DNA of 38,827 bases. It comes from Oscillospiraceae bacterium. Lineage in GTDB: Bacteria; Bacillota; Clostridia; Oscillospirales; CAG-272. This document shows, in pieces, positions 10,870 to 24,710 of the stretch. The notes under the pieces were generated by a model, which saw only the letters and a program-made list of their open reading frames with translations, ran no database searches and had not been told where the DNA came from. The stretch lies in assembly GCA_015065135.1 (NCBI GenBank), contig SVQY01000020.1, positions 1 through 38,827 on the forward strand. The letters run 5' to 3'. Position 1 is the first letter of the stretch; each line of letters begins with the position of its first letter. Made by a program: the position numbers and the translations under genes.

Positions 10870-10908
10870 ATTCATTTCTCCTTTACACGGAAATCGTGGG
10901 ATGCTTTT

Positions 10909-10937
10909 ATTATACAATCATTTTGAGCGAAAGTAAA
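10909..10937 (-). promoter_or_regulatory. Sigma-A-type promoter for galM
   Basis: Minus strand TTTACT (10937-10932), 17-nt spacer, TATAAT (10914-10909), about 40 nt before the start codon. Confidence 0.65.
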
Positions 10938-11019
10938 GAGGTTTTTGGTCACAAAAACTCAAAAATCGGCCACTCGCACATGAATTTCGTATATATCAGA
11001 GAAAATAGCTATGATAATA

Positions 11020-11048
11020 TTGACATTCTATGGCTTTTCCTTTATAAT
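11020..11048 (+). promoter_or_regulatory. Consensus sigma-A promoter for the Crp/Fnr-ABC operon
   Basis: TTGACA (11020-11025), exactly 17 nt, TATAAT (11043-11048): a perfect match to consensus in both boxes. The expected start site is about 11055. Confidence 0.9.
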
Positions 11049-11052
11049 ATAA

Positions 11053-11070
11053 TTGTCTCATATGAGACAA
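11053..11070 (+). promoter_or_regulatory. 18-bp perfect palindrome at the transcription start, probable Crp/Fnr operator
   Basis: TTGTCTCATATGAGACAA is perfectly self-complementary. Its TGTCT-N6-AGACA core has the 5-6-5 geometry of Crp-family sites (TGTGA-N6-TCACA). It overlaps the predicted start site and sits just ahead of the ribosome site of the regulator gene itself. Confidence 0.78.
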
Positions 11071-11081
11071 AAGGAGGACTT

Positions 11082-11744
11082 ATGAAGGAAATTGACCTAC
11101 TCGCTGCACTAAGGGCACTGCCCCTGTTTTCCAAGACCGACGAGCGGCAGCTTGCGGATTGGATGGCACGGCATCAGCTGCCGCTGCAAAGCATTCCAAA
11201 GGGCAAACGCATCAATCGCCTTCGCAAGCGCGATCTTGGCGTTGTGCTGCAGGGCTGTGCCGAGATCCAGTCAGCAGACCGCGGCCGTCACGTGATCCTG
11301 CGCGAGCTGCAGGCTCCCGGCATCTTTGGCGCGGCGGCAATGTTTTGCGAAAAGGATTTCCCCGTGTCGCGCATTATGGCCAGAAGCGATTCTCTCGTTC
11401 TGTACATTCCGGCCGAGGCTGTGGATGATCTGATGCGCACCGATGACGGTTTTCGTGCCGCTTACCTCGCCTTCCTCTCCGACCGCATTCGTTTTCTCAA
11501 CCGCAAGATCCTTTGCTACACCGCAGGAAACACCGACCGCCGTCTGGCACTCTGGCTCATTTCCGAGGAAAACAGAAGGATCATACTCCCTGCCTCTGTC
11601 ACAGCATTCGCCAATATGCTGGATATGAGCAGAGCCTCTGTCTACCGTGGGCTTGATAAGCTGGAAAGCGAGGATCTGATCCGCCGTAACGGGCGGGAGA
11701 TCATCGTGATCTCGCCCAAAGAGCTTGTAGAAAAATATCAATAA
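11082..11744 (+). CDS. Crp/Fnr-family transcriptional regulator
   Basis: A 220-aa protein with a cyclic-nucleotide-binding-like beta roll (about residues 12-120), a long dimerisation helix (125-150) and a C-terminal winged helix. The recognition segment 'FANMLDMSRASVYRGLDKLESEDLIRRNGREIIV' aligns with the SRETVGR helix of E. coli Crp: both Arg are kept but Glu is replaced by Ala, consistent with a different half-site. There is no N-terminal Cys cluster as in Fnr, so an Fe-S oxygen sensor of the Fnr type is unlikely; the ligand is unknown. The ATG at 11082 follows AAGGAGG. It is the first gene of a four-gene operon with an ABC importer, which it probably controls together with its own expression. 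Confidence 0.92.
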   Translation: MKEIDLLAALRALPLFSKTDERQLADWMARHQLPLQSIPKGKRINRLRKRDLGVVLQGCAEIQSADRGRHVILRELQAPGIFGAAAMFCEKDFPVSRIMARSDSLVLYIPAEAVDDLMRTDDGFRAAYLAFLSDRIRFLNRKILCYTAGNTDRRLALWLISEENRRIILPASVTAFANMLDMSRASVYRGLDKLESEDLIRRNGREIIVISPKELVEKYQ

Positions 11745-11763
11745 CCCAAGAAAGGAAAAAACC

Positions 11764-12750
11764 ATGAAAAAAACGATCGCACTCATTCTTGCTCTTACTC
11801 TGCTCGTTGCCCTGCCCCTTTTTGCCGGCTGCAACAAGCTGGATAAGGATCTGGAGATCCGCGTTTGGACGCTGAACGGCACCACCGGCTTCGGCATGGC
11901 ACAGCTGATCGATGCCGATAAAAACGGTACTGCCGCCCTCAATTATACCTTTACCGTTGAGACCGCCGCCACCAACGTGCGCGATGCGCTGATCAACGGC
12001 ACCGCCGACATCGGCGCCGTACCCACCAATATGGCCTCTGCCCTTTACAACGCCACAAACGGCGAGATCCTGCTGCTGGCGCTGAACACCCGCGGCGTGC
12101 TGTATCTGGTCGCCAACACGGGCAAGGTCGAGGCCCCTGCCTCTCTTGCAGATCTTGCGGGCAAAACCGTTTTTGTTCCGGCACAGAACCCCACCTTTAT
12201 CACCAAGGCGCTGCTGGATAAGGCCGCCGTTGCAAACGTAACGATCGACAGTGCCACCTATGCCGAGCCCGCCGCGCTGCAGGCTGCCGTTGCTCAGGGA
12301 CTTGTTGACTATGCCGTACTGCCCGAGCCGATGGTCACCATTGCCAAGACCAAGGCTGCACAAAATAGCATTACACTTTCCGAATCTCCCTTGAACCTCA
12401 CCGCTGAGTGGGATAAGCACTTCACCGAGGGCTCTCTGGTTCAGGGCTGCGTGGTCGTGCGCAAGGGCTTTGCCGAGGATCACCCTGCCGAGGTCGCCAA
12501 GTTCCTGGAGGAATACGAGGCTTCGATCAATTTTGTGACCGGCAACCCCGCCGAGGCGGCTACGATGATCGTAGATGCCGGCATTTTCGCGCAGGCCCCC
12601 GTTGCACAAAAGGCGATCCCCAACTGCAACCTCTGCTTTGTGGCAGGGGCCGATATGCAGAGCGCTATGAGCGCATTTCTCGCCGCAATGCCCGTCGCCT
12701 CCATTGGCGGTAAAGTTCCTGACGAGGGCTTCTACTACGTGGCAAAATGA
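11764..12750 (+). CDS. ABC importer substrate-binding lipoprotein (SsuA/TauA/NMT1-like)
   Basis: A 328-aa extracytoplasmic solute-binding protein. The lipoprotein signal peptide ends in a lipobox LFAGC with the lipidated Cys23. The mature part resembles the nitrate/sulfonate/taurine and thiamine-precursor binding families: 'IRVWTLNGTTGFGMAQL', 'ALINGTADIGAVPTNMASAL', 'LADLAGKTVFVPAQNPTF', 'GLVDYAVLPEPMVT', and a helical C-terminal 'VAKFLEEYEASINFV'. These families bind small organic or anionic ligands, and the ligand here cannot be named. It is 19 nt after the regulator gene and its stop overlaps the permease start (ATGA). Confidence 0.9.
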   Translation: MKKTIALILALTLLVALPLFAGCNKLDKDLEIRVWTLNGTTGFGMAQLIDADKNGTAALNYTFTVETAATNVRDALINGTADIGAVPTNMASALYNATNGEILLLALNTRGVLYLVANTGKVEAPASLADLAGKTVFVPAQNPTFITKALLDKAAVANVTIDSATYAEPAALQAAVAQGLVDYAVLPEPMVTIAKTKAAQNSITLSESPLNLTAEWDKHFTEGSLVQGCVVVRKGFAEDHPAEVAKFLEEYEASINFVTGNPAEAATMIVDAGIFAQAPVAQKAIPNCNLCFVAGADMQSAMSAFLAAMPVASIGGKVPDEGFYYVAK

Positions 12751-13517
12751 TCAAAAAACACCGATTGCTCGGCTATTGTTACCCGATCCTCGCCCTGCTT
12801 TTCTGGGTGGGGGTCTGGTGGTTGATCGCTGCCATTCTCAGAAAGCCGCTGATCCTACCGGCGCCGCCTGCGGTACTGCGGACCCTTGGTGAGCTCGCTA
12901 TTACGTGGCCTTTTTGGAGGACCGTTCTGCTCTCGCTGCTGCGCATTTCGGGCGGCATCCTGCTGGCTCTGCTCTCCGGCTCGCTTCTGGCGCTGCTAAC
13001 AGTAAAAAGCCGCTTCATTCACCATCTTTTCTCCCCTCTGCTCACACTATTCAAGGCCACACCGGTCGCATCGGTCATCTTTCTGGTCCTGCTTTGGGTC
13101 GGAAGAGATAACGTGCCGCTGCTGATCGCTTACGTAATGGCCCTCCCCATTGTGTGGAGCAATGTGCGCGAGGGCTTCTTGCAGACCGACCGCAAGCTGC
13201 TGGAGATGGCAACAGTATTCGGCCTTTCCAAAAAACAGCAGCTGTTTTCGATCCGCATCCCCTCGCTTTATCCTTATTTTCTTGCCGCCTGCCGCTCTGC
13301 CATCGCTTTGGCTTGGAAGGCCGGGATCGCCGCCGAGGTGCTTTGCTCCCCCAAAAACGCCATTGGCTCCGCCATCTACGAAAGCAAGCAATACCTGATG
13401 ACCGAGGAGCTGTTTGCCTGGACCCTGGTGGTGATCGTGATCAGCGCAGCGATCGAGTGGGGCGCCCTTGCCCTGCTGCAGCGCTCACAACGCAAATGGG
13501 AGGTGCAAAAATCATGA
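12747..13517 (+). CDS. ABC importer permease (SsuC/TauC-type)
   Basis: A 256-aa inner-membrane permease with about six transmembrane helices. It carries the BPD_transp_1 fold, with the EAA-type loop 'LLEMATVFGLSKKQQLFSIRIPSLYPYFLAACRSAIALAWKAGIAAEVL', which contacts the ATPase. Members of this subgroup work with NMT1-type binding proteins, as found immediately upstream. It starts at 12747 with a 4-nt overlap and ends with a 4-nt overlap into the ATPase gene. No conflicting features were seen. Confidence 0.93.
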   Translation: MIKKHRLLGYCYPILALLFWVGVWWLIAAILRKPLILPAPPAVLRTLGELAITWPFWRTVLLSLLRISGGILLALLSGSLLALLTVKSRFIHHLFSPLLTLFKATPVASVIFLVLLWVGRDNVPLLIAYVMALPIVWSNVREGFLQTDRKLLEMATVFGLSKKQQLFSIRIPSLYPYFLAACRSAIALAWKAGIAAEVLCSPKNAIGSAIYESKQYLMTEELFAWTLVVIVISAAIEWGALALLQRSQRKWEVQKS

Positions 13518-14119
13518 CAAAGCTCTCTCAAGTCTCTCTTGTATTTGACGGCAAGCCCGTGATCGATCAGCTCTCCTACAGCTTTCCTGACAAAGGCATT
13601 TTTGCCATTATGGGCCCCTCCGGCTGCGGCAAGACCTCGCTGCTGCGCTTGCTTGCGGGGTTAGAGCAGCCTAGCACGGGAAACGTGATGCGAAGCCACC
13701 ACCGCGTGGCGGTTGCATTTCAGGAGCCGCGCCTGTTACCCTGGTTGAATTGCGAAGAAAACTTAAAATTGGTTCTATCAGAAGTTGAAAATATGCCTAA
13801 AACAGTTTCCTACTGGTTGGAGGCATTGGAGCTGACCGAAGCAGCGAAGCAGCTGCCGAACACCCTTTCGGGCGGTATGCAGCAACGCCTTTCGCTGGCA
13901 AGAGCCCTTGCCTTTGGCGGCGATCTGCTGCTTTTGGACGAGCCCTTTTCTGCATTGGATCGCCCCTTGAAGGAGCGGATCGCGCCACGGATCAAAGCAG
14001 TTGCGCAGCAGGCGCTCGTCATTCTTGTCACCCACGACCGCGAGGAAGCCGAGCTGCTCTCCGCTACAGTTCTGAACTGCATCGGCACGCCTCTGCGTGC
14101 CCTTGAAAAAGACGAATGA
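13514..14119 (+). CDS. ABC importer ATP-binding subunit (SsuB/TauB-type), short
   Basis: A 201-aa ATPase that powers the importer. It has Walker A GPSGCGKTS, Q-loop FQEPRLLPW, signature LSGGMQQR, Walker B LLLLDEP and H-loop THD. It is shorter than the usual 240-260 aa because the C-terminal extension is missing, while the nucleotide-binding core is complete. The reading frame is open upstream, but the start is ATG 13514, which follows GGGAGGTG and overlaps the permease stop (ATGA). Last gene of the regulator-importer operon, followed by a strong terminator. Confidence 0.93.
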   Translation: MTKLSQVSLVFDGKPVIDQLSYSFPDKGIFAIMGPSGCGKTSLLRLLAGLEQPSTGNVMRSHHRVAVAFQEPRLLPWLNCEENLKLVLSEVENMPKTVSYWLEALELTEAAKQLPNTLSGGMQQRLSLARALAFGGDLLLLDEPFSALDRPLKERIAPRIKAVAQQALVILVTHDREEAELLSATVLNCIGTPLRALEKDE

Positions 14120-15056: not shown

Positions 15057-15967
15057 TTCTCGTCACCTCCCGTCAGCTTCTTACCCGTTACCGACAAAAA
15101 TACATCGTCCATTTTACCCTTGGTCACCTCATAATCCCGAAAGAGTGACGGACTTTGCAGGATCAGCTCTGTCGCCGCCGCCGTGCTTGGCACCTGCAGC
15201 CGAAAGGCATCGCGCAAGGGCTCATAGGGCACCTGCAAAGCCTTGATCTCCGTCTCGGTTGCGCCATAGACAGTGATAAAATCACCGGTGTACGCGTTTT
15301 TCAGCTCCAGCGGCGTACCCTTGGCCGCGATCTGCCCGTTATCCAGAATGACCACGTAATCCGCGTCTGCCGCCTCCTCCATATAGTGCGTTGTCAAAAA
15401 GACGGTCAAGCCCTCGGTCTCGCGCAGCTGCGCGATCACCGACCAAAGCAGCCGCCGCGTTTGCGGATCCAACCCGGTGGTGGGCTCGTCAAGGATCAGG
15501 ATACGCGGACGGTGTAAAAGGGCACGCGCAATATCGATGCGCCGCCGCTGACCGCCCGAAAGCTTGCCAAGCGGACGCTTTAGTAGGTCTTCAAATTGCA
15601 GCAGACGACAAAGCTCCTGCAATCTCTCCCGAAAGGCGGCACCCGTGATGCCGTATAAAGCCGCGCGGCTTTCCAGATTATCATAAACCGAGAGCGCCGC
15701 ATCCAGCACAGAGCCTTGAAAAACAACGCCCAACTGCCGCTTGACGCCGACAGGATCCTTATCCAGATCCTTGCCGTCCACCGTCACGCTGCCGCCGTCC
15801 TTTTCCAGCTGTCCGCAAAGGATGTGGATGGTGGTGGACTTTCCCGCACCGTTGACACCGAGAAAGGCGAACAACTCCCCTTCCTTCACGCAAAAGCTGA
15901 GGTCCTGCACCGCCTTGATCTCTCCAAAGCTTTTGCAAAGATGCTCGATCTCAATGATATTTTTCAT
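15053..15967 (-). CDS. ABC exporter ATP-binding subunit (DrrA-like)
   Basis: A 304-aa ATPase with Walker A GVNGAGKSTT, Q-loop VVFQGSVLD, signature LSGGQRRR, Walker B ILILDEPTTG, and H-loop TTHYMEEA. The roughly 80-residue C-terminal DrrA-type extension (from about residue 220) is present. The start is ATG 15967, preceded by AGGGGAGGG; upstream codons of the same frame precede the ribosome site and overlap the promoter. It is followed directly by the permease gene, forming a two-gene export system with its own promoter. Confidence 0.93.
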   Translation of the reverse strand: MKNIIEIEHLCKSFGEIKAVQDLSFCVKEGELFAFLGVNGAGKSTTIHILCGQLEKDGGSVTVDGKDLDKDPVGVKRQLGVVFQGSVLDAALSVYDNLESRAALYGITGAAFRERLQELCRLLQFEDLLKRPLGKLSGGQRRRIDIARALLHRPRILILDEPTTGLDPQTRRLLWSVIAQLRETEGLTVFLTTHYMEEAADADYVVILDNGQIAAKGTPLELKNAYTGDFITVYGATETEIKALQVPYEPLRDAFRLQVPSTAAATELILQSPSLFRDYEVTKGKMDDVFLSVTGKKLTGGDEK

Positions 15968-15998
15968 ATGTCCCTCCCCTTTCAGTTCTTCTGCCTTT

Positions 15999-16027
15999 AT
16001 TGTACACAAAATCCGCCCAAAGTGCAA
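15999..16027 (-). promoter_or_regulatory. Sigma-A-type promoter for the ABC-2 exporter genes
   Basis: Minus strand TTGCAC (16027-16022), 17-nt spacer, TACAAT (16004-15999), about 30 nt before the start codon. Confidence 0.7.
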
Positions 16028-16155
16028 GCACCTTCGATCATTCGGTTATTTTTTTCGGTTATCTGGCTCATACGGTCAGCTTTTCCACTTGCAACAAGGA
16101 AGCAAATGTCTAAAGCATCTCATTCCACCACCTTAGTCGGCTTGTTTTGGCTAAA

Positions 16156-16202
16156 AACACAAAAAATGGCCCCCTTTTTGGGGAGGCCATCTTTTTTGTG
16201 TT
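16156..16202 (-). terminator. Intrinsic terminator of the SipW-type secreted gene pair
   Basis: Long A/T-flanked hairpin with a GC core (TGGCC plus CCCC against GGGG plus GGCCA, one bulge), preceded and followed by A/T runs that extend the pairing. Confidence 0.8.
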
Positions 16203-16278
16203 GATAAATACATTTTCGGCTATAAAGCGCTCTGCGCAAAAGACGATCGGATCATAGCCGAAGCTTGTGCGCTTTCAT

Positions 16279-16311
16279 TGCCGCCCAAGCCCCGAGGGGC
16301 TTGGGTGGCGG
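16279..16311. repeat. GC-rich imperfect palindrome (REP-like candidate)
   Basis: Arms of about 14 nt, roughly GCCGCCCAAGCCCC against GGGGCTTGGGTGGC with one G-T mismatch, around a GAG loop. No T run follows in either direction. It resembles short interspersed palindromes rather than a terminator. Confidence 0.45.
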
Positions 16312-16332
16312 GGGTGCGTCAGAGACGGCAAA

Positions 16333-19300
16333 TCAGTCGTTCTGATTGATCACGTAATGGAGACAAGAGCTGTAAAGCTCGCCGAGTGCACGCATAGAGG
16401 ACGCGCAGTAGTGTGCCCAGTCGGTGTTGTCGCTTTCGTTTCCGTAGTCCTCGTACAGCGGATCGCTCGGATCAAGCTCGTGAGCCGTTTTCTTCGAAAG
16501 CAGATGGCTCGTGTCGATGTAGATCGAGTTCGCGATCGCACCGCTCTGATCGGGGTTCGCAATCGTAGGAACGTTAAGTCCGAACACGTAACCCTCGAGC
16601 GGTCCCTCCGTCAACGCGGAATCACTCGATGCGCCGATAATCGAGCAGAGCCACTGGCTGTTGCTGATCTTGCCACGGTTGACCTCAAGCGAGTAAATCC
16701 AGTCGTTCGGACCGGTACCGCCGGTTGCAGGCTGCTTGCTATCATTGTTCGCAATACCAGCATTAATGAAGGAAATACCCGAGCCGGGAACCTGCAGAGC
16801 CGAGGTCGCTCTCGTTGCGTAGGCAGCAAAGGTGTTGCGGACGCGATTGACTAGCGCTTCCTCAAGCGCTGCATAGTTTTTCGCAGTAGCCTCGGTTGCA
16901 GCATCGGATTCACCCTGCATCCACATGAAGCTGCGGATTCGAACGTCGTAGCCCTCTTCCTCAAGACTGTCGAGTGCATCTTGTACGTAAGCAAGCATAT
17001 CGTCGGTCAGATTCGTGTTCTTTCCGTCGATCGTGCAACCCGATGTCCACTGACTGCCAAGTGCCGTTCCTGCCGCAGCATATTTGATAATATACCAGTT
17101 TTCTCCGTTCAGGGCAGTATTCGTTGCAAGCGAGTATGCAAGCGCAAGTTCGGGACCGAAGTAGGTCGTGCCCTGTGCACCGATACCGACACGATACTTC
17201 TCAAAGTCGCCGTTCGAGAAGATCGTGCTGAGCGAGCCGGGGATCGATTCGTTGGGAGCAACGTCAAAGTTGATATTCGCGTACTTGATAAAGACGTTTG
17301 AATAATCAAAGCTTGCATAATTATCGATAATATCCTGCGTCAGCGGTGCGGGACCGAACATATTCGACTGACCTGCCATAATGATCACATTTGCGTTCGG
17401 CTTCTCGGTATCAATAAAGGTCGCGTCGTTTTCGGACACCTCTGCCATATTGACCGTCCAGTCAGCAAGCGGAGACATACCGTCCTCAAAGACGAGCACC
17501 CAGTGTACCGTATAGCTCTCACCGGGCTGGAAGGTGCCGCAGTTCATCTCGAGCAGCGAGTGACCGTTGTTCCAACCGAAGCTATTATACATGTCGCCCT
17601 CGGTATATACGATCGCAGGAGCAGTCCACTGCAGGGTCGAGAGATCGTCGCCAATGTAGTAGCCGAAGCCCTTCAGCTGCGGAGCATCCTCCAAGCAACC
17701 AACCACGCAGTTGATACCAAGCGTCGTATAAGGCTTTGCGTTATCGATCGTCAATCCGTAATATCCTTCCGAATATTTACCTTCGACGAAATTACCCCAG
17801 TAGGTATTGCCCCATTCACCGTACTCGTTATTAAATCCATAGACGAGCTCGCCGTTCGGCGCGGTATAGGTCAGGTTGTTATTAGCAAAATGATCGTAGG
17901 TATATGCGCTATTGACCAAATGTGCCCAACCGGAAACGTTAAAGCCACCAGTGGCGAAGAAAGGAGCCTTTACAGCAGTGTTGTTAGGATCCGCGATGGG
18001 CAATCTGATACGATCCTCCAAAAGCGTAAGGCTATGGATTGAAACCGTACAGGTTGCGGTCATAACATTGCCGAAATCGTCGGTATAGGAGATCGTAAAC
18101 GTCTTGCTGTCGGCGGTTTCTGCCGCCTCAACGAAGGTAAAGCTCGTAATCTTTCCGCTACTACCATTCTTGCTCGTTGCATAGACGACAAAATCGTCGT
18201 TCGTAAAGACATGATCCTTGTCGTAAACGCCCTTGAGCGGCTTTGCCGAGATCGAGATGATATTCATAATGACCTTGTACCATGTCTTATAGCTCACACC
18301 GTCGATCGTGACCGGGGTAACAAGATCGGTTTCCGCAATCTCGCAATCTTTTGCCAGCTTAATGGACGAATTATCCATAATACCCTCGTCGGTCGGTTTA
18401 GCATCGGGATGTTCCTTGAGGATATTTTTGAATTCGCTAGTATGTGTGGGATCCTGGCGATACGCTTTATCGATCAGCATAACGCCTTCGTGTATGGTGA
18501 TGAAAGGTCTGTCGCCCTCATATCCATTGGTAGCGTTGAACGCACCGTTGTTACGGTTAAGAACGTCATTGGGGGTATTATTATAAAGGAAATAACCGCC
18601 GTAGATGTTCATATTACCGCCCTTACCTGCGTAAATGAGAGCACGGTTGCTGTTCTCGTGCTTCATGTCACCGTTTGCGGGGTCGAAATTGCCGTTACCG
18701 TCAACAGATGTACCGATGGGATCGCCTGCATAGGAGTCTGCGATAAACGCGCCGCTGTAAATATCTACGTAGGAGGGAGTATCGTAAGGTGCCCAGACCA
18801 TATAGATAGAGCTTGCCATCTTGATAAAGCCGGTTCCGACTCTGTCGATAATGTTCAGGCTGCCCTCTTTGTCAACAAAGAACAGAGCGCCAACGTCCTG
18901 ATTGCCGGTAGCAGTATCGCTGCACTTGACGGTGATCTTGTGACCGTTCAGATCAATGGCAACGTTCTGACCGATGATATTGACCGCATTATGGTAGGTT
19001 TTACTACCGCTTACCAGAACGTGCTCACTGCTGCGGTCTGCGCTGCCTGCAGTCAGATCAATGGTAAAATCAGCCGTCAGCTTGATCTCTACGTCGCTTT
19101 GCTTAACGGCATCACGCAGAGCTGCAAGAGTTTCAACCTCGATCTCTTCATACTCAAACGCATAAGGGCTGAAGCTGCCGGTCTTGAAGGTGAGAGTACC
19201 TTCTACCTCATCATAAACCGCATCCTCGATCAGAACACCGTTATGATAGGCGTTCATCGCTGCCAAAGCATTGGGAGCGGCGACCGCAACGGTGACCAGC

Positions 19301-20214
19301 TGATCGCCGGAAAGGTTCTCCTTCAGGTTGGTAACAGAAATATCAAATGCGTATGCCTTGGTATTCTCACCGACGGTAATGGTCTGAGAAGGATCGATAC
19401 CGTCAAAGGTAACGGTTACGGGCTGGGTGGGATCTGCAATGGCGCTTGCGGGAACGGTGACCGTTGCAATGGTCAAGCCATCGTGAACAAGCTCAAAGTC
19501 CACAGACCCGGCACCATCTGCAAGGGTCTTGCTTTCCGTTGCCAGGATAGAGGTATCCGACAGATCGTCAAAGGTAGCATCCTTATCGTACTGATCGTCA
19601 AAGCTATCAAACTCGGCCGTGTACTGCGTTGCGTAAATGCGGATATCGAAGGCGCCGCCGAGTGACAGGCCCTGATACTCGTTGCCTGCATCCTCACGCA
19701 TTCTCAGCGCAATGCCGAGATAGGCACACTCCCCTGCCTCCAACGTACCGTAGGTGGTCTCCTCAATGGAGTTGATGAACTTGCGCAGGTTGCCAACGCA
19801 TGTGTAACCGTCAAGGTTGCGATCGGCAGGATAAGCAAGCTCGCTCTCACTGGGATAAACGTAAACGTCGATCACGTCGGCGAGAATGGAAAGCTCCTTC
19901 TCAGAGTAGAGCTTGGCGACCCACTTCAATGCGAGCGTTCCCTCATTCTCTACCTTTAATACTTTAACGTCAACGTAACCGGGCTCCCACTTGTCATAAT
20001 CGAAAATTGGATCCTGACTTTTCTTCAGAGAGCTCCAAACACCCGTCTCCTTGTCAAGCAGCTCCAGATCAAGCTTCAAAGTACCGGACTGGATCTTGTT
20101 ACCCGAGCTGGTCACCGAATCGGTGAACCAGGCCCACGTCGTACCGAGGAGCATAGATATACACAGGAGCAATGAAACAACGCTCATCAATAATGATTTT
20201 TTAGTGTTTTTCAT
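16333..20214 (-). CDS. Large secreted protein: SipW-type/TasA-like N-terminus, beta-helix and Ig-like regions, C-terminal SGNH acetylesterase domain
   Basis: A 1293-aa protein. Residues 1-30 form a SipW-type signal peptide (SLLLCISMLLGTTWAWFTD), followed by a TasA/camelysin-like module to about 215 ('SGTLKLDLELLD', 'GTLALKWVAKLY', 'GGAFDIRIYATQYT'). A beta-sandwich-like segment covers about 225-350, a right-handed beta-helix-like region about 355-640 ('VAIDLNGHKITV', 'NMNIYGGYFLYNN'), and a Big_3-type Ig repeat about 645-720. After an unrecognised region comes a SGNH hydrolase domain from about 940: GQSNM with Ser950, WMQGESDA with Glu1102, and DTSH with Asp1234/His1237. These fit the CE6/sialate-O-acetylesterase group, which removes acetyl groups from sugars. 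No LPxTG anchor is visible. The start is ATG 20214 after AAGGAG. It lies 18 nt downstream of a paralogous gene in the same operon. Confidence 0.85.
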   Translation of the reverse strand: MKNTKKSLLMSVVSLLLCISMLLGTTWAWFTDSVTSSGNKIQSGTLKLDLELLDKETGVWSSLKKSQDPIFDYDKWEPGYVDVKVLKVENEGTLALKWVAKLYSEKELSILADVIDVYVYPSESELAYPADRNLDGYTCVGNLRKFINSIEETTYGTLEAGECAYLGIALRMREDAGNEYQGLSLGGAFDIRIYATQYTAEFDSFDDQYDKDATFDDLSDTSILATESKTLADGAGSVDFELVHDGLTIATVTVPASAIADPTQPVTVTFDGIDPSQTITVGENTKAYAFDISVTNLKENLSGDQLVTVAVAAPNALAAMNAYHNGVLIEDAVYDEVEGTLTFKTGSFSPYAFEYEEIEVETLAALRDAVKQSDVEIKLTADFTIDLTAGSADRSSEHVLVSGSKTYHNAVNIIGQNVAIDLNGHKITVKCSDTATGNQDVGALFFVDKEGSLNIIDRVGTGFIKMASSIYMVWAPYDTPSYVDIYSGAFIADSYAGDPIGTSVDGNGNFDPANGDMKHENSNRALIYAGKGGNMNIYGGYFLYNNTPNDVLNRNNGAFNATNGYEGDRPFITIHEGVMLIDKAYRQDPTHTSEFKNILKEHPDAKPTDEGIMDNSSIKLAKDCEIAETDLVTPVTIDGVSYKTWYKVIMNIISISAKPLKGVYDKDHVFTNDDFVVYATSKNGSSGKITSFTFVEAAETADSKTFTISYTDDFGNVMTATCTVSIHSLTLLEDRIRLPIADPNNTAVKAPFFATGGFNVSGWAHLVNSAYTYDHFANNNLTYTAPNGELVYGFNNEYGEWGNTYWGNFVEGKYSEGYYGLTIDNAKPYTTLGINCVVGCLEDAPQLKGFGYYIGDDLSTLQWTAPAIVYTEGDMYNSFGWNNGHSLLEMNCGTFQPGESYTVHWVLVFEDGMSPLADWTVNMAEVSENDATFIDTEKPNANVIIMAGQSNMFGPAPLTQDIIDNYASFDYSNVFIKYANINFDVAPNESIPGSLSTIFSNGDFEKYRVGIGAQGTTYFGPELALAYSLATNTALNGENWYIIKYAAAGTALGSQWTSGCTIDGKNTNLTDDMLAYVQDALDSLEEEGYDVRIRSFMWMQGESDAATEATAKNYAALEEALVNRVRNTFAAYATRATSALQVPGSGISFINAGIANNDSKQPATGGTGPNDWIYSLEVNRGKISNSQWLCSIIGASSDSALTEGPLEGYVFGLNVPTIANPDQSGAIANSIYIDTSHLLSKKTAHELDPSDPLYEDYGNESDNTDWAHYCASSMRALGELYSSCLHYVINQND

Positions 20215-20232
20215 AGCCAAATCTCCTTAATA

Positions 20233-21798
20233 TCACTGAGGGAGCTTTTGATATACCTGTTCACCGTCAATGATAATCGTTGCGGTAGCAGATACCTTAC
20301 CCGTGGTACCGATATTTCCTGTGTAGGTGATAGTTTCAGCCTCAATAGTGCCGCCAGTACCAAGGATTAGAAGAGCATATCCTCCTTCAGCTTCGATAGA
20401 GGAGTTTTTAACATAGGCGCAAGAGCCATTGCCTACTGCAACGCCGTATGTAGCTTTGATTGTGCAGTTCTCTACCCAAACGCCAACGGTCTCGGAGTGA
20501 GTAGAGTACTGCGCGCCGATTGCTACATGCTGATTCGATGTACCGGTGACAACGATCTCCGCATTCTCAATCACCGCATAGCCAACACGGAAGCCTCTAT
20601 TCGACTCATAATAACCTCCGTCGATCTCAAGCGAGAACTGATCTCCGGTGTAGTGATAAGCATCAACTATCCACGATCCGTTAGTGGAACCGTCAATCGT
20701 TACAACATTATTCATTGTAATTGCAATTGCACCGTCTCCACGGGGCTTAATAAACGAGCCGTTATCGGTGGAACCAATGTACTTACCGCCATTAAGAGTA
20801 ACGGTCGCGTCGTTGCCTGCGGGAATGTTAACAAGACCGTAAGCTCCTACAAGTACAACTTCTTGATTCTCTACATTAGTAGTCGTATCACTATTAACGG
20901 TACCGTTAATGGTATAGTCTACCTCGTCAGCAAGCTCGAACGGACGACCCTTCAACGCAGAAGCATCAATATCATATCCATTCAAATGAACGATCAAATC
21001 TTTTTCAATCATTATCGCAGTATCTGCTGCTGTAAATACAATGTCAGCTGTAAGGTAGTATTCTCCACCAATCTTTGCTGCCTTTCTAAATTCGTCCAAA
21101 CTATTGATCGTGCCGAATCCGGTCTCTGCATCATACAGATCATCGAAGCTGTCTTCCTCGTAGGTGTGCTGGGTGGCCACGATCTTGAGGTCAAATTTGC
21201 CGCCAAGATCAAGGTTCTGATACTCGTTTCCTGCCGTGGGATCCATGCGAAGCACGATGCCAAGATAGGATTCCTGGCCGGCCTCAAGCGTTCCCTTGGT
21301 CATGGCCGTCAGGTTCTCAATGAAGTCACGAAGAGTAAACTTCTTGAACTGACCCTGCTCGGCAAGGGTATCAAACTGTGCGCGATCGGTAACACCGTCA
21401 ATGTAATCCCTTACGGTGTCGCTGCGGTCATCGCTTCTGACGTAGACGAAAATGGCGTCGGCAAGAATAGAAAGACTCTCCTCTGTCATAATGACGGCCT
21501 GCCACTTCAGCGCGAGCGTACCAAGATTCACAACACGAAGATTGACGACCTCGGTATAGCCGGGCTCCCATTTCGTGTAATTGAAAATCGGATCGCTCGA
21601 AGCATCGACCCACTTTTCGCCATCAACGTCCCACTTTTCAAGTGCGATGTCTAACGTACCCGTTTGAATGAGGTTACCGGAAGAGGAAACCTGATCGGTA
21701 AACCAAGCATACGTGGTTCCAAGGAGCATGGAAATACACATAAGCATGGCGATCACGCTCATCAAAAGGGCACGCTTGGTGCTTTTTTTGCTTGTCAT
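20233..21798 (-). CDS. Secreted SipW-type/TasA-like protein with beta-helix C-terminus
   Basis: A 521-aa protein whose first 230 residues are clearly paralogous to the next gene's product: SipW-type signal peptide (SMLLGTTYAWFTD), 'SSGNLIQTGTLDIALE', 'YTKWEPGY', 'GTLALKW', 'SLSILADAI', 'GTLEAGQESYLGIVLRM', 'LGGKFDLKIVATQHT'. The rest, from about 250, enters with 'LDEFRKAAKIGGEYYLTADI' and continues with Asn/Gly-rich short strands typical of a right-handed beta-helix ('VTLNGGKYIGS', 'SLEIDGGYYES', 'VWVENCTIKATYGVAV'). No catalytic motif was found. Proteins of this kind are usually processed by a SipW-like signal peptidase and form cell-surface or matrix material; none is encoded in the window. 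The start is ATG 21798, 11 nt after AGGAGG; the upstream ATG at 21837 precedes that ribosome site. Confidence 0.83.
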   Translation of the reverse strand: MTSKKSTKRALLMSVIAMLMCISMLLGTTYAWFTDQVSSSGNLIQTGTLDIALEKWDVDGEKWVDASSDPIFNYTKWEPGYTEVVNLRVVNLGTLALKWQAVIMTEESLSILADAIFVYVRSDDRSDTVRDYIDGVTDRAQFDTLAEQGQFKKFTLRDFIENLTAMTKGTLEAGQESYLGIVLRMDPTAGNEYQNLDLGGKFDLKIVATQHTYEEDSFDDLYDAETGFGTINSLDEFRKAAKIGGEYYLTADIVFTAADTAIMIEKDLIVHLNGYDIDASALKGRPFELADEVDYTINGTVNSDTTTNVENQEVVLVGAYGLVNIPAGNDATVTLNGGKYIGSTDNGSFIKPRGDGAIAITMNNVVTIDGSTNGSWIVDAYHYTGDQFSLEIDGGYYESNRGFRVGYAVIENAEIVVTGTSNQHVAIGAQYSTHSETVGVWVENCTIKATYGVAVGNGSCAYVKNSSIEAEGGYALLILGTGGTIEAETITYTGNIGTTGKVSATATIIIDGEQVYQKLPQ

Positions 21799-22104
21799 AT
21801 TGTCTATGACCTCCTTTTTTGATCGGCGCGGGATCAAAACCGCACTCAGTCTGCGCCACTTCTACCGAGTGCCGTTATGGCCTTTCTTACATGTATAAAC
21901 CCGATGCTCAATAAAGCCATATCAATTCAGCCCGGGCCTTGCTTTGCAATCAGCATTCACACAGTTGACAAGCTCCTGATTGTCACGTGCCTGTTTTGCA
22001 TTTGCGGCTTTGCCATCTGAAGCGGCGCAGCATAAAAATGCGGTGCCGCTTCGGATATTCTAAAATCTTATACATATGTATTTTGTATAGATATGCAACA
22101 TTTC
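21799..22104 (-). promoter_or_regulatory. Long structured 5' leader of the SipW-type operon (candidate cis-regulatory RNA)
   Basis: About 300 nt lie between the likely promoter and the start codon, without a credible gene. In the RNA direction hairpins can form at 22052-22019 (8-bp GAAGCGGC stem plus inner GCAT/ATGC), 21985-21966 (TGACAA stem), 21872-21842 (9-bp stem with a G-U pair) and 21839-21817 (TTTTGATC stem immediately before the AGGAGG). A GCAAAGC motif occurs near 21945. I could not match it securely to a known riboswitch class. Confidence 0.45.
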
Positions 22105-22110
22105 GGATAT

Positions 22111-22138
22111 ATTCTATAACAAAAAAAAAAAAACACAA
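22111..22138 (-). promoter_or_regulatory. Candidate promoter for the SipW-type operon
   Basis: Minus strand TTGTGT (22138-22133), 16-nt spacer that is mostly a run of T, TAGAAT (22116-22111). It is the best match found upstream of the leader but is not close to consensus. Confidence 0.35.
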
Positions 22139-22245
22139 CTACTTAGGCGCATTTTCTTTGCAATTTAACAGTTTTTTTACATTTATCCATAAATTTTGCC
22201 CGTTAAAAGGCTCTATCTGTGCCTCCGTGCCTCTTGAAAAACCAC

Positions 22246-22285
22246 AAAAAAAGATGAGCAAGAAGCTTCTTGCTCATCTTTTTTT
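22246..22285 (-). terminator. 40-bp perfect palindrome, intrinsic terminator of the GH3 gene
   Basis: Two 20-nt arms (22246-22265 and 22266-22285) are perfect complements with no spacer, bounded by seven A on the left and seven T on the right. It is able to terminate in either direction. Confidence 0.85.
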
Positions 22286-22342
22286 GAGTTACACAGAAAA
22301 CTACCCGCAATGCAAGTGGGCAACAAAGGTTATACCCCAAAT

Positions 22343-22366
22343 GGCCTTCCCCAACGGGGGAAGGCC
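22343..22366. repeat. GC-rich hairpin, CCTTCCCC...GGGGAAGG (REP-like candidate)
   Basis: 10-bp stem (22343-22352 with 22357-22366) around AACG, with no T run. It may be an interspersed palindrome or an mRNA-stability hairpin after the GH3 gene. Confidence 0.45.
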
Positions 22367-22427
22367 AACGTAGTGCCCGCTTTAGCGAAAACATGCACAA
22401 AGGCGAGGAATAAGCAAGTACTTATCA

Positions 22428-24710
22428 TTATTCGGCATCCACACGGACATAAACGGCATCCTCCGCCTCTGTCGTCAGTTCTGCTTCCAGGGGCAGCACG
22501 GGATTGGAACCGATCATCACCCGAACGGTTGCCGCCTCCACCTCATATCTCTCGTGGATCGAATATACGCAAAGCTCCTCTTTTCCCAACAGAAAGCTGA
22601 CTCGCTTCGTTTCGCCGGGCATCAGATACACTCTTTCGTAGCCACGCAGCTCTTTGGCGCGCCTTCTGACCGAATTTCCGCTGCCGCTGATATATAGCTG
22701 CACCACCTCTGCTCCCCCGATCTCCGATTCGTTTTTTACGATAGCGGATATCCGAAAGCTGTTTTTGCCCAAGCGCTCCACCTGTAGATCCGCATAGGAA
22801 AAGGTGGCGTAGGAAAGGCCGTAGCCGAATGGGTAAAGCACGGGATGCAAATGATCCAGATACGTCCGATTGTATGCCTTGCGCTTGGCATTCTCTTTTG
22901 TTTTTTCGTAGCGATTGTAATAGACGGGCAGACAGGCGGCAGAGGCAGGCATGGAAACGGACAGCTTGCCCGATGGGTTGACACGACCGATCAGAATATC
23001 ACCGATAGCCTCGCCGCCCCGCAAGCCCGGATACCAGGCCGTCAGCACCGCATCGGCAAGCTCGTTTTCCTCTGCGATCGCATAGGGCCTACCCGCGATC
23101 ATCAAAAGGACGACGGGGATTCCCTCAGCCTTCAGACATCGTATCAGCTCGGTCTGATTTCCGGGCAGGTGCAGGTCAGCCACGTCGCACCCTTCGCCGC
23201 AGTCCAAAAACATCTCGGAGCCGGATGCTGCGCCGGTGTGACGGTCATACGTTGCCTCTGCCAGCGCTCGCGCAGAGCTCCCCCCGACCGTAACCACAGC
23301 CACGTCGCAGCTGCGTGCCAGCGCCAGAGCTTGCTCTATGCTCTTGTCATCCCCTTCAAAATCCCAGCCGGCCGCATAATGCAGCTCCTCGAACCGCTCC
23401 TCCAGAGCCTCCAGCAGCGTGTTATGCTCCTCCTCGCTTTGTAAAGACGTATAATCTCCCAACATATAATATACGTTTGCCGCATGAGCACCAAGCAGCG
23501 CCACGCGCTTTTGAGGGGATAACGGCAGAACACCGTTATTTTTCAAGAGCACCACAGACTCACACGCGGCCTCATAGGCCAGCTTCTTTTGTTCACCGCT
23601 CTGCAAATAAGCCACCAACGAGCCGTCATCCTCGGTGTAGGGTTGATCGAACAGCCCAAGCTCATACTTCTTTTTCAGAATGCGCAGCACCGCCTCATCT
23701 ATCAACGATTCCTCGACCAATCCTTTTTCGCAGGCACCGATCAGATGCAAAAACGCCCCGTGATCTGCCAAACTCAGATCGATTCCCGCACGTAGCACCG
23801 CGGCGGCTCCTCGCTCCGCATCCATTCCCATTTGTTCAACAGCCCTTGTTACGCCCCAACCGTCGGAAAGCAGAATTCCCCCAAAGCCAAGCTCGTCGCG
23901 CAACACGTCCCGCAGCAAGTATTTGTTCAGATGACAGGGCACGCCGTCCACGGTGTTGTAGGCAGCCATCACAACGTCTGCACCTGCACGAACCGCTGCT
24001 CTCGCTCCCGACAAATGGATATCGTGCAGCTCCCGTCTCCCCACATTCACCTCCGCTGTATTCAGTCCTCCAAAGGCGTCCCCCGCAGCGCAAAAATGCT
24101 TACAGCACAACAACGCATTGGAGACTTTAAAACCCTTGACGCCGCTTTGTGCATAACGTCCGATCAGATATGGGTCCTCCGAGAAGCACTCTTCGGTACG
24201 CCCCCAACGTGGGTCGCGCGCTACGTCCAGCATAGAGGTAAATCCCATTTGAGTGGCGGAAAGCGAGATCTCTCTGCCCACGCTTGTCATAATTCTACCG
24301 TACAGCTCGTCGTGGAACATACATCCAAGGCCCAAATTGGTTGGAAAGACCTCGCTGCCCAAGGCCATAACGCCATGATTCGCCTCAACCTCTATCAATA
24401 CGGGAATGGGTACTCTCGATCTGTCAAGCACCTCTTTTTGCAGCTGATTCGCTACCTTTACACGGTGTCGCGGCTCAATCCCATCCGCAAAGCTCTCCAC
24501 CGCAAAGGGATCGGCACGCAGAAGATTACTGATGGCACCCATCGCCCCATATTCCTCCAAAAAAGAATAAAAGGCGGGTTGGAAAAAGAAATTCTCTCCC
24601 TTTCGGCAAAAGCCGCGGTATCCTGCCACGGTTTGGGAAAGCTGAGCAACCTTTTCACGCAGATTCAAACGCTTCAAAAGCTGGCGTGCATAGAGCTCAT
24701 GATTTTTCAT
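22428..24710 (-). CDS. Glycoside hydrolase family 3 beta-glycosidase
   Basis: A 760-aa retaining exo-glycosidase. The N-terminal TIM-barrel contains 'VARDPRWGRTEECFSEDPYLIG', the substrate-site 'CCKHFCAAG', and the nucleophile segment 'GILLSDGWGV' with Asp283. A second alpha/beta domain includes 'VALLGAHAANVYYMLGDY' and 'GEGCDVADLHLPGNQTELI', and a C-terminal Fn3-like domain starts near 640. No signal peptide is seen, so it probably acts in the cytoplasm on imported oligosaccharides. Family members cleave beta-glucosides, xylosides or N-acetylglucosaminides; the pattern fits the beta-glucosidase/xylosidase side. The start is ATG 24710, 6 nt after AAGGTG; a GTG 9 nt earlier lies inside that site. 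Single gene with its own likely promoter and terminator. Confidence 0.93.
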   Translation of the reverse strand: MKNHELYARQLLKRLNLREKVAQLSQTVAGYRGFCRKGENFFFQPAFYSFLEEYGAMGAISNLLRADPFAVESFADGIEPRHRVKVANQLQKEVLDRSRVPIPVLIEVEANHGVMALGSEVFPTNLGLGCMFHDELYGRIMTSVGREISLSATQMGFTSMLDVARDPRWGRTEECFSEDPYLIGRYAQSGVKGFKVSNALLCCKHFCAAGDAFGGLNTAEVNVGRRELHDIHLSGARAAVRAGADVVMAAYNTVDGVPCHLNKYLLRDVLRDELGFGGILLSDGWGVTRAVEQMGMDAERGAAAVLRAGIDLSLADHGAFLHLIGACEKGLVEESLIDEAVLRILKKKYELGLFDQPYTEDDGSLVAYLQSGEQKKLAYEAACESVVLLKNNGVLPLSPQKRVALLGAHAANVYYMLGDYTSLQSEEEHNTLLEALEERFEELHYAAGWDFEGDDKSIEQALALARSCDVAVVTVGGSSARALAEATYDRHTGAASGSEMFLDCGEGCDVADLHLPGNQTELIRCLKAEGIPVVLLMIAGRPYAIAEENELADAVLTAWYPGLRGGEAIGDILIGRVNPSGKLSVSMPASAACLPVYYNRYEKTKENAKRKAYNRTYLDHLHPVLYPFGYGLSYATFSYADLQVERLGKNSFRISAIVKNESEIGGAEVVQLYISGSGNSVRRRAKELRGYERVYLMPGETKRVSFLLGKEELCVYSIHERYEVEAATVRVMIGSNPVLPLEAELTTEAEDAVYVRVDAE

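What the first reader, a model, noticed from the sequence alone, without database searches (positions are those of the whole stretch)
16333..21798. Two-gene cassette of SipW-type secreted proteins, one fused to an SGNH acetylesterase
Both products share a closely similar TasA/camelysin-like N-terminal module of about 230 residues and continue into beta-helix-like sequence. The second adds an Ig-like repeat and a C-terminal SGNH domain with Ser950, Glu1102 and Asp1234/His1237. I know of TasA-type proteins as fibre or matrix components, and of CE6/sialate-O-acetylesterases as free enzymes or modules on glycosidases; I do not recall the two being joined. The inference is a surface-displayed matrix protein that deacetylates host or plant glycans.
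Basis: partly seen in the sequence, partly recalled or inferred. Interest (0 to 1): 0.72.

Follow-up and report, generated by a model that had tools for sequence, protein, structure and literature searches.

The report
Fibre-protein head joined to sugar esterase
A gut bacterium encodes a secreted protein whose front resembles a biofilm-fibre building block and whose end looks like an enzyme that removes acetyl groups from sugars; comparison with relatives suggests that such heads and tails have been swapped during evolution, which would make the fibre head a general carrier for different tools.

The parts
20233..21798 (-). Gene B: SipW-type TasA-like protein with C-terminal beta-helix-like part, 521 aa, first gene of the pair
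   Evidence: TIGR04088 and PF12389 over cut-off
21706..21798 (-). Gene B signal peptide, residues 1-31 (cleavage inferred before WFTD)
   Evidence: TIGR04088; cleavage site inferred
16333..20214 (-). Gene A: TasA - ZU5-like - beta-helix - Ig-like - beta domain - SASA, 1293 aa
20131..20214 (-). Gene A signal peptide, residues 1-28 (cleavage inferred before WFTD)
   Evidence: TIGR04088; cleavage site inferred
20080..20130 (-). Candidate donor strand, residues 29-45
   Evidence: A28 W29 F30 S36 N39 I41 G44 L46 invariant in 36 rows; pLDDT under 50 at 26-43; TasA donor strand is 28-38 (PMC9674648 passages)
19570..20130 (-). TasA-like module, residues 29-215
19144..19545 (-). ZU5/GAIN-like domain, residues 224-357
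19168..19173 (-). Phe348-Ser349, candidate self-cleavage site (with His324 at 19243-19245)
   Evidence: H324, F348, S349, P350 98/98; rat NLRP1 autocleavage F968/S969 with catalytic H942 (PMC8081665 passages)
18250..19143 (-). Right-handed beta-helix, residues 358-655
18016..18246 (-). Ig-like domain, residues 657-733
   Evidence: strands in model; PF07523 (name Big_3 recalled) in some relatives; no Pfam hit in gene A itself; not fold-searched alone
17416..18012 (-). Beta-rich domain preceding the esterase, residues 735-933
   Evidence: evolves with SASA (r 0.88 and 0.85)
16336..17409 (-). SASA/SGNH esterase domain, residues 936-1293
17365..17367 (-). Nucleophile Ser950 in GQSN
   Evidence: 90/90
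16909..16917 (-). QGE motif, residues 1100-1102
   Evidence: 90/90; motif of SASA/CE6 (PMC9487903 passages)
16411..16422 (-). Block V Asp1265-W-A-His1268
   Evidence: D and H 90/90
22245..22286 (-). Terminator-like perfect hairpin between the upstream GH3 gene and gene B
16161..16195 (-). Terminator-like hairpin downstream of gene A

Best explanation
Genes B and A form one two-gene transcription unit for secreted matrix-type proteins. A SipW-like peptidase encoded elsewhere in the genome removes the signal peptides. The freed N-terminal segment of each TasA-like head acts as a donor strand, so that gene A is built into, or caps, a TasA-type fibre, perhaps together with gene B. Gene A's fibre head carries an arm (ZU5-like, beta-helix, Ig-like, beta domain) ending in an SGNH/SASA acetylesterase (Ser950, Asp1265, His1268) that removes O-acetyl groups from glycans near the cell. 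The head is a general carrier: in relatives near-identical heads bear other esterase variants or other tails, joined by past recombination near domain borders. The ZU5-like domain may cut itself at Phe348-Ser349, leaving the arm held non-covalently or releasable. Shown by computation: anatomy, folds, conserved active-site residues, module discordance. Inferred: transcription unit, secretion route, polymerisation, self-cleavage, esterase activity, substrate.
Confidence: 0.58

Rival explanations
1. The TasA-like module is only a secretion/adhesion domain and does not polymerise; gene A is a large soluble or loosely bound extracellular esterase.
For: Large arm; the TasA head occurs on very many different proteins (1532 hits at E<=1e-10). 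No TapA-like partner is known here (none was searched for).
Against: The donor-strand segment is among the most conserved parts; the fold match is to the fibre form 8AUR.
Confidence: 0.27
2. The esterase acts on the bacterium's own matrix polysaccharide or wall rather than on dietary or host glycans.
For: TasA-type proteins are matrix components; some SGNH enzymes act on bacterial exopolysaccharides and wall polymers (family knowledge; PMC9487903 seen in passages only).
Against: Closest solved folds are NanS, a putative acetylxylan esterase and a plant esterase; the genome encodes GH10, GH43 and BNR_2 proteins, so external acetylated substrates are likely to be met.
Confidence: 0.25
3. The head/tail discordance among relatives reflects chimeric metagenome contigs, or concerted evolution of heads among paralogs in one genome, rather than swapping of tails between genes.
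For: The proteins come largely from metagenome-type sources and the database is clustered at 90%, which removes pairs alike throughout; heads with 100% identity could be paralogs of one species.
Against: The same filter leaves the C-terminal block linked at r 0.85-0.89; discordance occurs in both directions; clusters P0003, P0004, P0005 stand for 2, 4 and 3 contigs. In one genome (G749) the heads at 10 of its 14 matched places were compared: 16 of 45 pairs exceed 55% identity and the highest is 77%, so its heads are not homogenised (one of the ten was cut too long).
Confidence: 0.3
4. The window's own fusion is an assembly artefact.
For: The window's exact gene A protein was not returned, whereas gene B's was returned (15 contigs).
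Against: Open frame without stops; relatives P0003 and P0004 have all five segments in the same order.
Confidence: 0.03

Closest known systems
TasA / CalY (camelysin) SipW-dependent matrix fibre proteins of Bacillus
   Same: Signal type, PF12389 match, TasA fibre fold, donor-strand segment
   Different: TasA is a single domain; here about 1070 further residues with an enzyme follow; no signal peptidase gene beside it
BsaA SipW-dependent matrix proteins (Clostridium perfringens)
   Same: SipW-dependent matrix family; a BsaA-like gene lies in the same genome (TIGR04090 at 39.4 bits, below its cut-off of 60)
   Different: Genes A and B do not match TIGR04090; different architecture
SASA / CE6 and NanS-type SGNH acetylesterases
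   Different: Here a C-terminal module of a SipW/TasA-headed protein
ZU5 / FIIND / GAIN autoproteolytic domains; bacterial ZU5 autopeptidases proposed in polymorphic toxins (PMC3482391 passages)
   Same: Fold and invariant His...Phe-Ser, the Phe-Ser lying between the last two strands
   Different: No Pfam ZU5 match; spacing His-Ser 25 rather than 27; joined to a TasA head; cleavage not shown
Polymorphic surface or toxin proteins with constant heads and exchanged C-terminal domains
   Same: Near-constant N-terminal carrier, varied C-terminal parts, breaks near domain borders
   Different: Tails are an enzyme or presumed adhesins; immunity genes were not looked for; exchange is read from sequence discordance only

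Membership tests
SipW-dependent secreted proteins (TIGR04088) | Signal peptide model above curated cut-off | tested here: met
   28.0 and 22.9 bits vs 19
TasA fibre proteins | TasA beta-sandwich fold | tested here: met
TasA fibre proteins | Donor strand after the signal peptidase site | tested here: inconclusive
   Conserved flexible segment 29-45; exchange not shown
TasA fibre proteins | Polymerises into fibres | not testable with these tools
   needs protein
TasA fibre proteins | sipW in the same operon (as in tapA-sipW-tasA) | tested here: not met
   No signal peptidase family in 30 window ORFs scanned with Pfam; SipW-like genes lie on contigs C30 and C37. TapA was not searched for
SASA/SGNH esterase (PF03629) | Model above curated cut-off | tested here: met
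   57.5 bits vs 24.8
SASA/SGNH esterase (PF03629) | GQSN serine, QGE motif, block V D-x-x-H | tested here: met
   all present in gene A; 90/90 in the aligned set
SASA/SGNH esterase (PF03629) | O-acetylesterase activity | not testable with these tools
   needs assay
ZU5/GAIN autoproteolytic domain | Fold | tested here: met
ZU5/GAIN autoproteolytic domain | Sequence model (Pfam) | tested here: not met
   no ZU5 or GPS hit at E<=1
ZU5/GAIN autoproteolytic domain | Catalytic His and Phe-Ser cleavage site | tested here: inconclusive
   H324, F348, S349 in 98/98 proteins selected by similarity to this region; 3D geometry not examined
ZU5/GAIN autoproteolytic domain | Self-cleavage | not testable with these tools
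   needs protein

The most novel reading that the evidence does not exclude
Uncultured gut Clostridia use TasA-type fibres as a chassis with interchangeable, self-cleaving arms: a near-constant fibre head is joined through a ZU5-type autoprocessing domain to swappable effectors (acetylesterases, leucine-rich-repeat proteins), giving an enzyme-bearing, re-toolable matrix fibre whose arms can be shed.
Probability: 0.26. Interest if true: 0.8.

Novelty: new variant of a known kind. Interest (0 to 1): 0.57.

Why it matters
TasA-type proteins are studied mainly as single-domain fibre subunits. Here their fold heads a family of large modular proteins, one class of which ends in a carbohydrate acetylesterase, with heads and tails that assort independently. 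If the head still polymerises, gut Clostridia would carry enzyme-decorated fibres, an alternative to cellulosomes for placing enzymes around the cell. The invariant His...Phe-Ser in the ZU5-like domain makes self-cleavage in a matrix-type protein directly testable.

Tried and rejected
Catalytic pair Asp1234/His1237: rejected by conservation. PDB sequence search with gene A found nothing and with the N-half profile nothing; the C-half profile found 2APJ only. Viral contigs: 3 pattern matches, none a relative. DNA repeats in 15800-22600: three direct families of 25-38 nt, 72-81% alike, and two inverted pairs, so no mechanism for swapping is visible in the window. Substrate from genome content: 3 BNR_2 matches (one over cut-off only with its neighbours), 1 GH10 and 3 GH43, so undecided.

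Fused genes in other whole genomes: (98 genomes with own; at most 6 candidates scored per genome) gave no row spanning both modules outside the window's genome, and no listed open frame with both; SASA matches in 10 of 20 other genus genomes, none of them read with a TasA match in the same frame (loci with 1.5 kb flanks); SASA at E<=1e-15 in 30 of 394 other family genomes, of which four stretches with five SASA frames in G361 and G275 were read and show no TasA match (one of these frames is cut by a contig end), the rest judged only by their open-frame lengths; 0 of 393 other order genomes, but at the strict limit of 1e-28. None of the seven genome-contig loci has both modules in one frame.

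Gene A's Ig-like and beta domains were not searched alone. TapA, immunity genes and the taxon of the window were not searched for. Literature: searches (listings) showed no paper on a TasA-esterase fusion; the library holds open papers only.

Rows dropped before counts: P0059 (a fragment with 41 SASA residues) is not among the 45; the SASA alignment of 90 takes domains with over 180 matched residues; 17 of the 45 fused proteins lack one of the four segments and are out of the linkage table of 28; P0021's short head is out of the TasA tree (44 rows) and.

Full report
Position and anatomy. Gene B comes first (21798 to 20233), then 18 bp, then gene A (20214 to 16333) with AAGGAG before its ATG. 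Terminator-like hairpins lie at 22286-22245, between the upstream GH3 gene and gene B, and at 16195-16161 after gene A. Such patterns are not in excess in the region (13 found, shuffled mean 10.9), but the first, with 19 pairs, has the most pairs of the 13. So the pair is probably its own transcription unit (inference). Neighbours are a GH3 enzyme and a sigma-70-family factor upstream and an ABC-2-type exporter pair downstream.

Families. Both proteins pass the curated cut-offs for the SipW-type signal (TIGR04088) and for PF12389; gene A also passes PF03629. The heads are 53% identical over 226 aligned positions.

Active site. In 90 aligned SASA domains (45 on TasA-headed proteins, the window's included, and 45 not), Gly948-Gln-Ser950-Asn, Gln1100-Gly-Glu1102, Asp1265 and His1268 are kept in all; Asp1234 is Asp in 81 of 90, His1237 is His in 19 of 45 and 3 of 45. 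SGNH enzymes present Asp and His three residues apart in block V, and SASA/CE6 enzymes have an (H)QGE motif that orients a Gln towards the active site (PMC9487903, passages).

Donor strand. In TasA the mature N-terminal residues 28-38 are the donor strand (PMC9674648, passages). In gene A, residues 26-43 have pLDDT under 50 while A28, W29, F30, S36, N39, I41, G44 and L46 are invariant in 36 aligned proteins: flexible but conserved, as a donor strand should be. This is an inference, not a demonstration. The genome has two SipW-like peptidase genes, on contigs C37 and C30, each near TasA- or BsaA-like genes (one is above the TIGR02228 cut-off, the other slightly below; both are below the cut-off of the Bacillus SipW equivalog). 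None of 30 window ORFs scanned with Pfam is a signal peptidase.

How common. Searching with the SASA region returned 90 proteins; searching with the TasA region returned 1532, 120 listed. Of the 307 proteins held after three searches (the window's two and 305 returned, one of which repeats gene B), 45 have both modules, the window's own included. Among the 120 listed, by hand count, 24 carry PF03629 and 34 carry PF13306 (LRR_5; name recalled). So the esterase is one of several tails on this head. In whole genomes held, the fusion is rare: no row outside the window's genome spans both modules, within the limits told under Tried and rejected. Six named genomes with a relative of one module or the other are uncultured Clostridia or Oscillospiraceae; four records name goat, sheep, yak or water deer gut. 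Matching contig lengths suggest that some relatives also have a B-type gene beside an A-type gene (P0134/P0197 15735; P0036/P0203 20482; P0140/P0283 7270); this is indirect.

Module exchange. Among the 45 fused proteins (990 pairs) TasA identity and SASA identity are unrelated (r 0.03, permutation p 0.23). Of 32 pairs with TasA at 90% or more, 26 have SASA under 55%; of 13 pairs with SASA at 90% or more, 6 have TasA under 65%. Examples: P0008/P0037, first 250 residues identical, SASA 49%; P0003/P0005, SASA 99%, TasA 42%. In the 28 proteins with all four segments, the C-terminal beta domain and the two SASA halves correlate at 0.85-0.89; TasA with the next segment at 0.33; the two middle segments at 0.52; the second middle segment with the C-terminal block at 0.16-0.23; TasA with the SASA halves at -0.09 and -0.04 (1000 permutations). 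The coherent C-terminal block serves as the control for the database's 90% clustering. AU tests on the two modules' trees reject the other module's group (p 4e-20 and 2e-6); the groups were picked from the identity tables, so these are not blind tests. Heads at 90% or more identity to a fused protein's head also occur on 7 of 208 non-SASA proteins, 4 of the 7 carrying PF13306. For gene B the sign is weak: head and tail identities of six relatives do not run together (P0197 head 74%, tail 52%; P0198 head 42%, tail 63%). Chimeric contigs or concerted evolution of heads remain possible for some pairs.

ZU5-like domain. In all 98 aligned proteins that match this region, His324, Tyr334, Gly339, Phe348, Ser349 and Pro350 are invariant while several residues beside them vary; the set was chosen by similarity to gene A. 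Phe348-Ser349 lies between predicted strands 340-345 and 351-360. In rat NLRP1 the FIIND (ZU5-UPA) is cut between Phe968 and Ser969 with His942 as catalytic residue, 27 residues before the Ser (PMC8081665, passages); here the distance is 25. ZU5 autopeptidases at the N-terminal side of bacterial polymorphic toxins have been proposed (PMC3482391, passages). The His...Phe-Ser-Pro pattern occurs in 34 of 45 fused proteins, 101 of 255 TasA-headed proteins and 0 of 52 others; shuffled TasA-headed sequences give 0.2 on average. Against it: no Pfam match, 11 of 45 fused proteins lack it, and the 3D distance could not be measured.

Verdict. The finding is real and its core is right; the catalytic pair needs correction and the fusion is a recurrent architecture. 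The more surprising parts are the independent assortment of heads and tails and the candidate self-cleaving domain. Function is inferred throughout.

Noticed in passing
window 19144-19545 (gene A residues 224-357): ZU5/GAIN-like domain with invariant His...Phe-Ser-Pro in 98 of 98 proteins matched to it; possible self-cleaving domain without a Pfam hit.
   Followed up: partly
gene A 16333-20214 versus gene B 20233-21798: Gene B's exact protein is in the protein database on 15 contigs, while gene A's exact protein was not returned. Unexplained; it could mean that gene A varies where gene B does not, or be an effect of the search by region.
   Followed up: no
L075 8143-17765 (G000 contig C30) and L076 4375-9468 (contig C37): Two further SipW/TasA-type clusters in the same genome, each with a SipW-like peptidase; the first also holds a BsaA-like gene and a 1774-aa protein.
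   Followed up: partly
G019 contig C8 28385-44566: Six TasA-type matches within 16 kb in a same-genus genome: gene arrays of this family.
   Followed up: no
P0020, P0022-P0028: Eight shorter proteins (753-786 aa) with the same C-terminal beta domain and SASA but a different N-terminus without TasA; the six scanned (P0020, P0022, P0023, P0024, P0027, P0028) have no TIGR04088 match.
   Followed up: partly
L071-L074 (G361, G275): SASA domains at 37-43% identity sit on long frames without a TasA match, some with lipoprotein-like N-termini by eye: the esterase is carried in another way in another genus of the family.
   Followed up: partly
window 10896-14119: Crp-type regulator followed by an ABC uptake system with an NMT1/THI5-like binding protein.
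   Followed up: no
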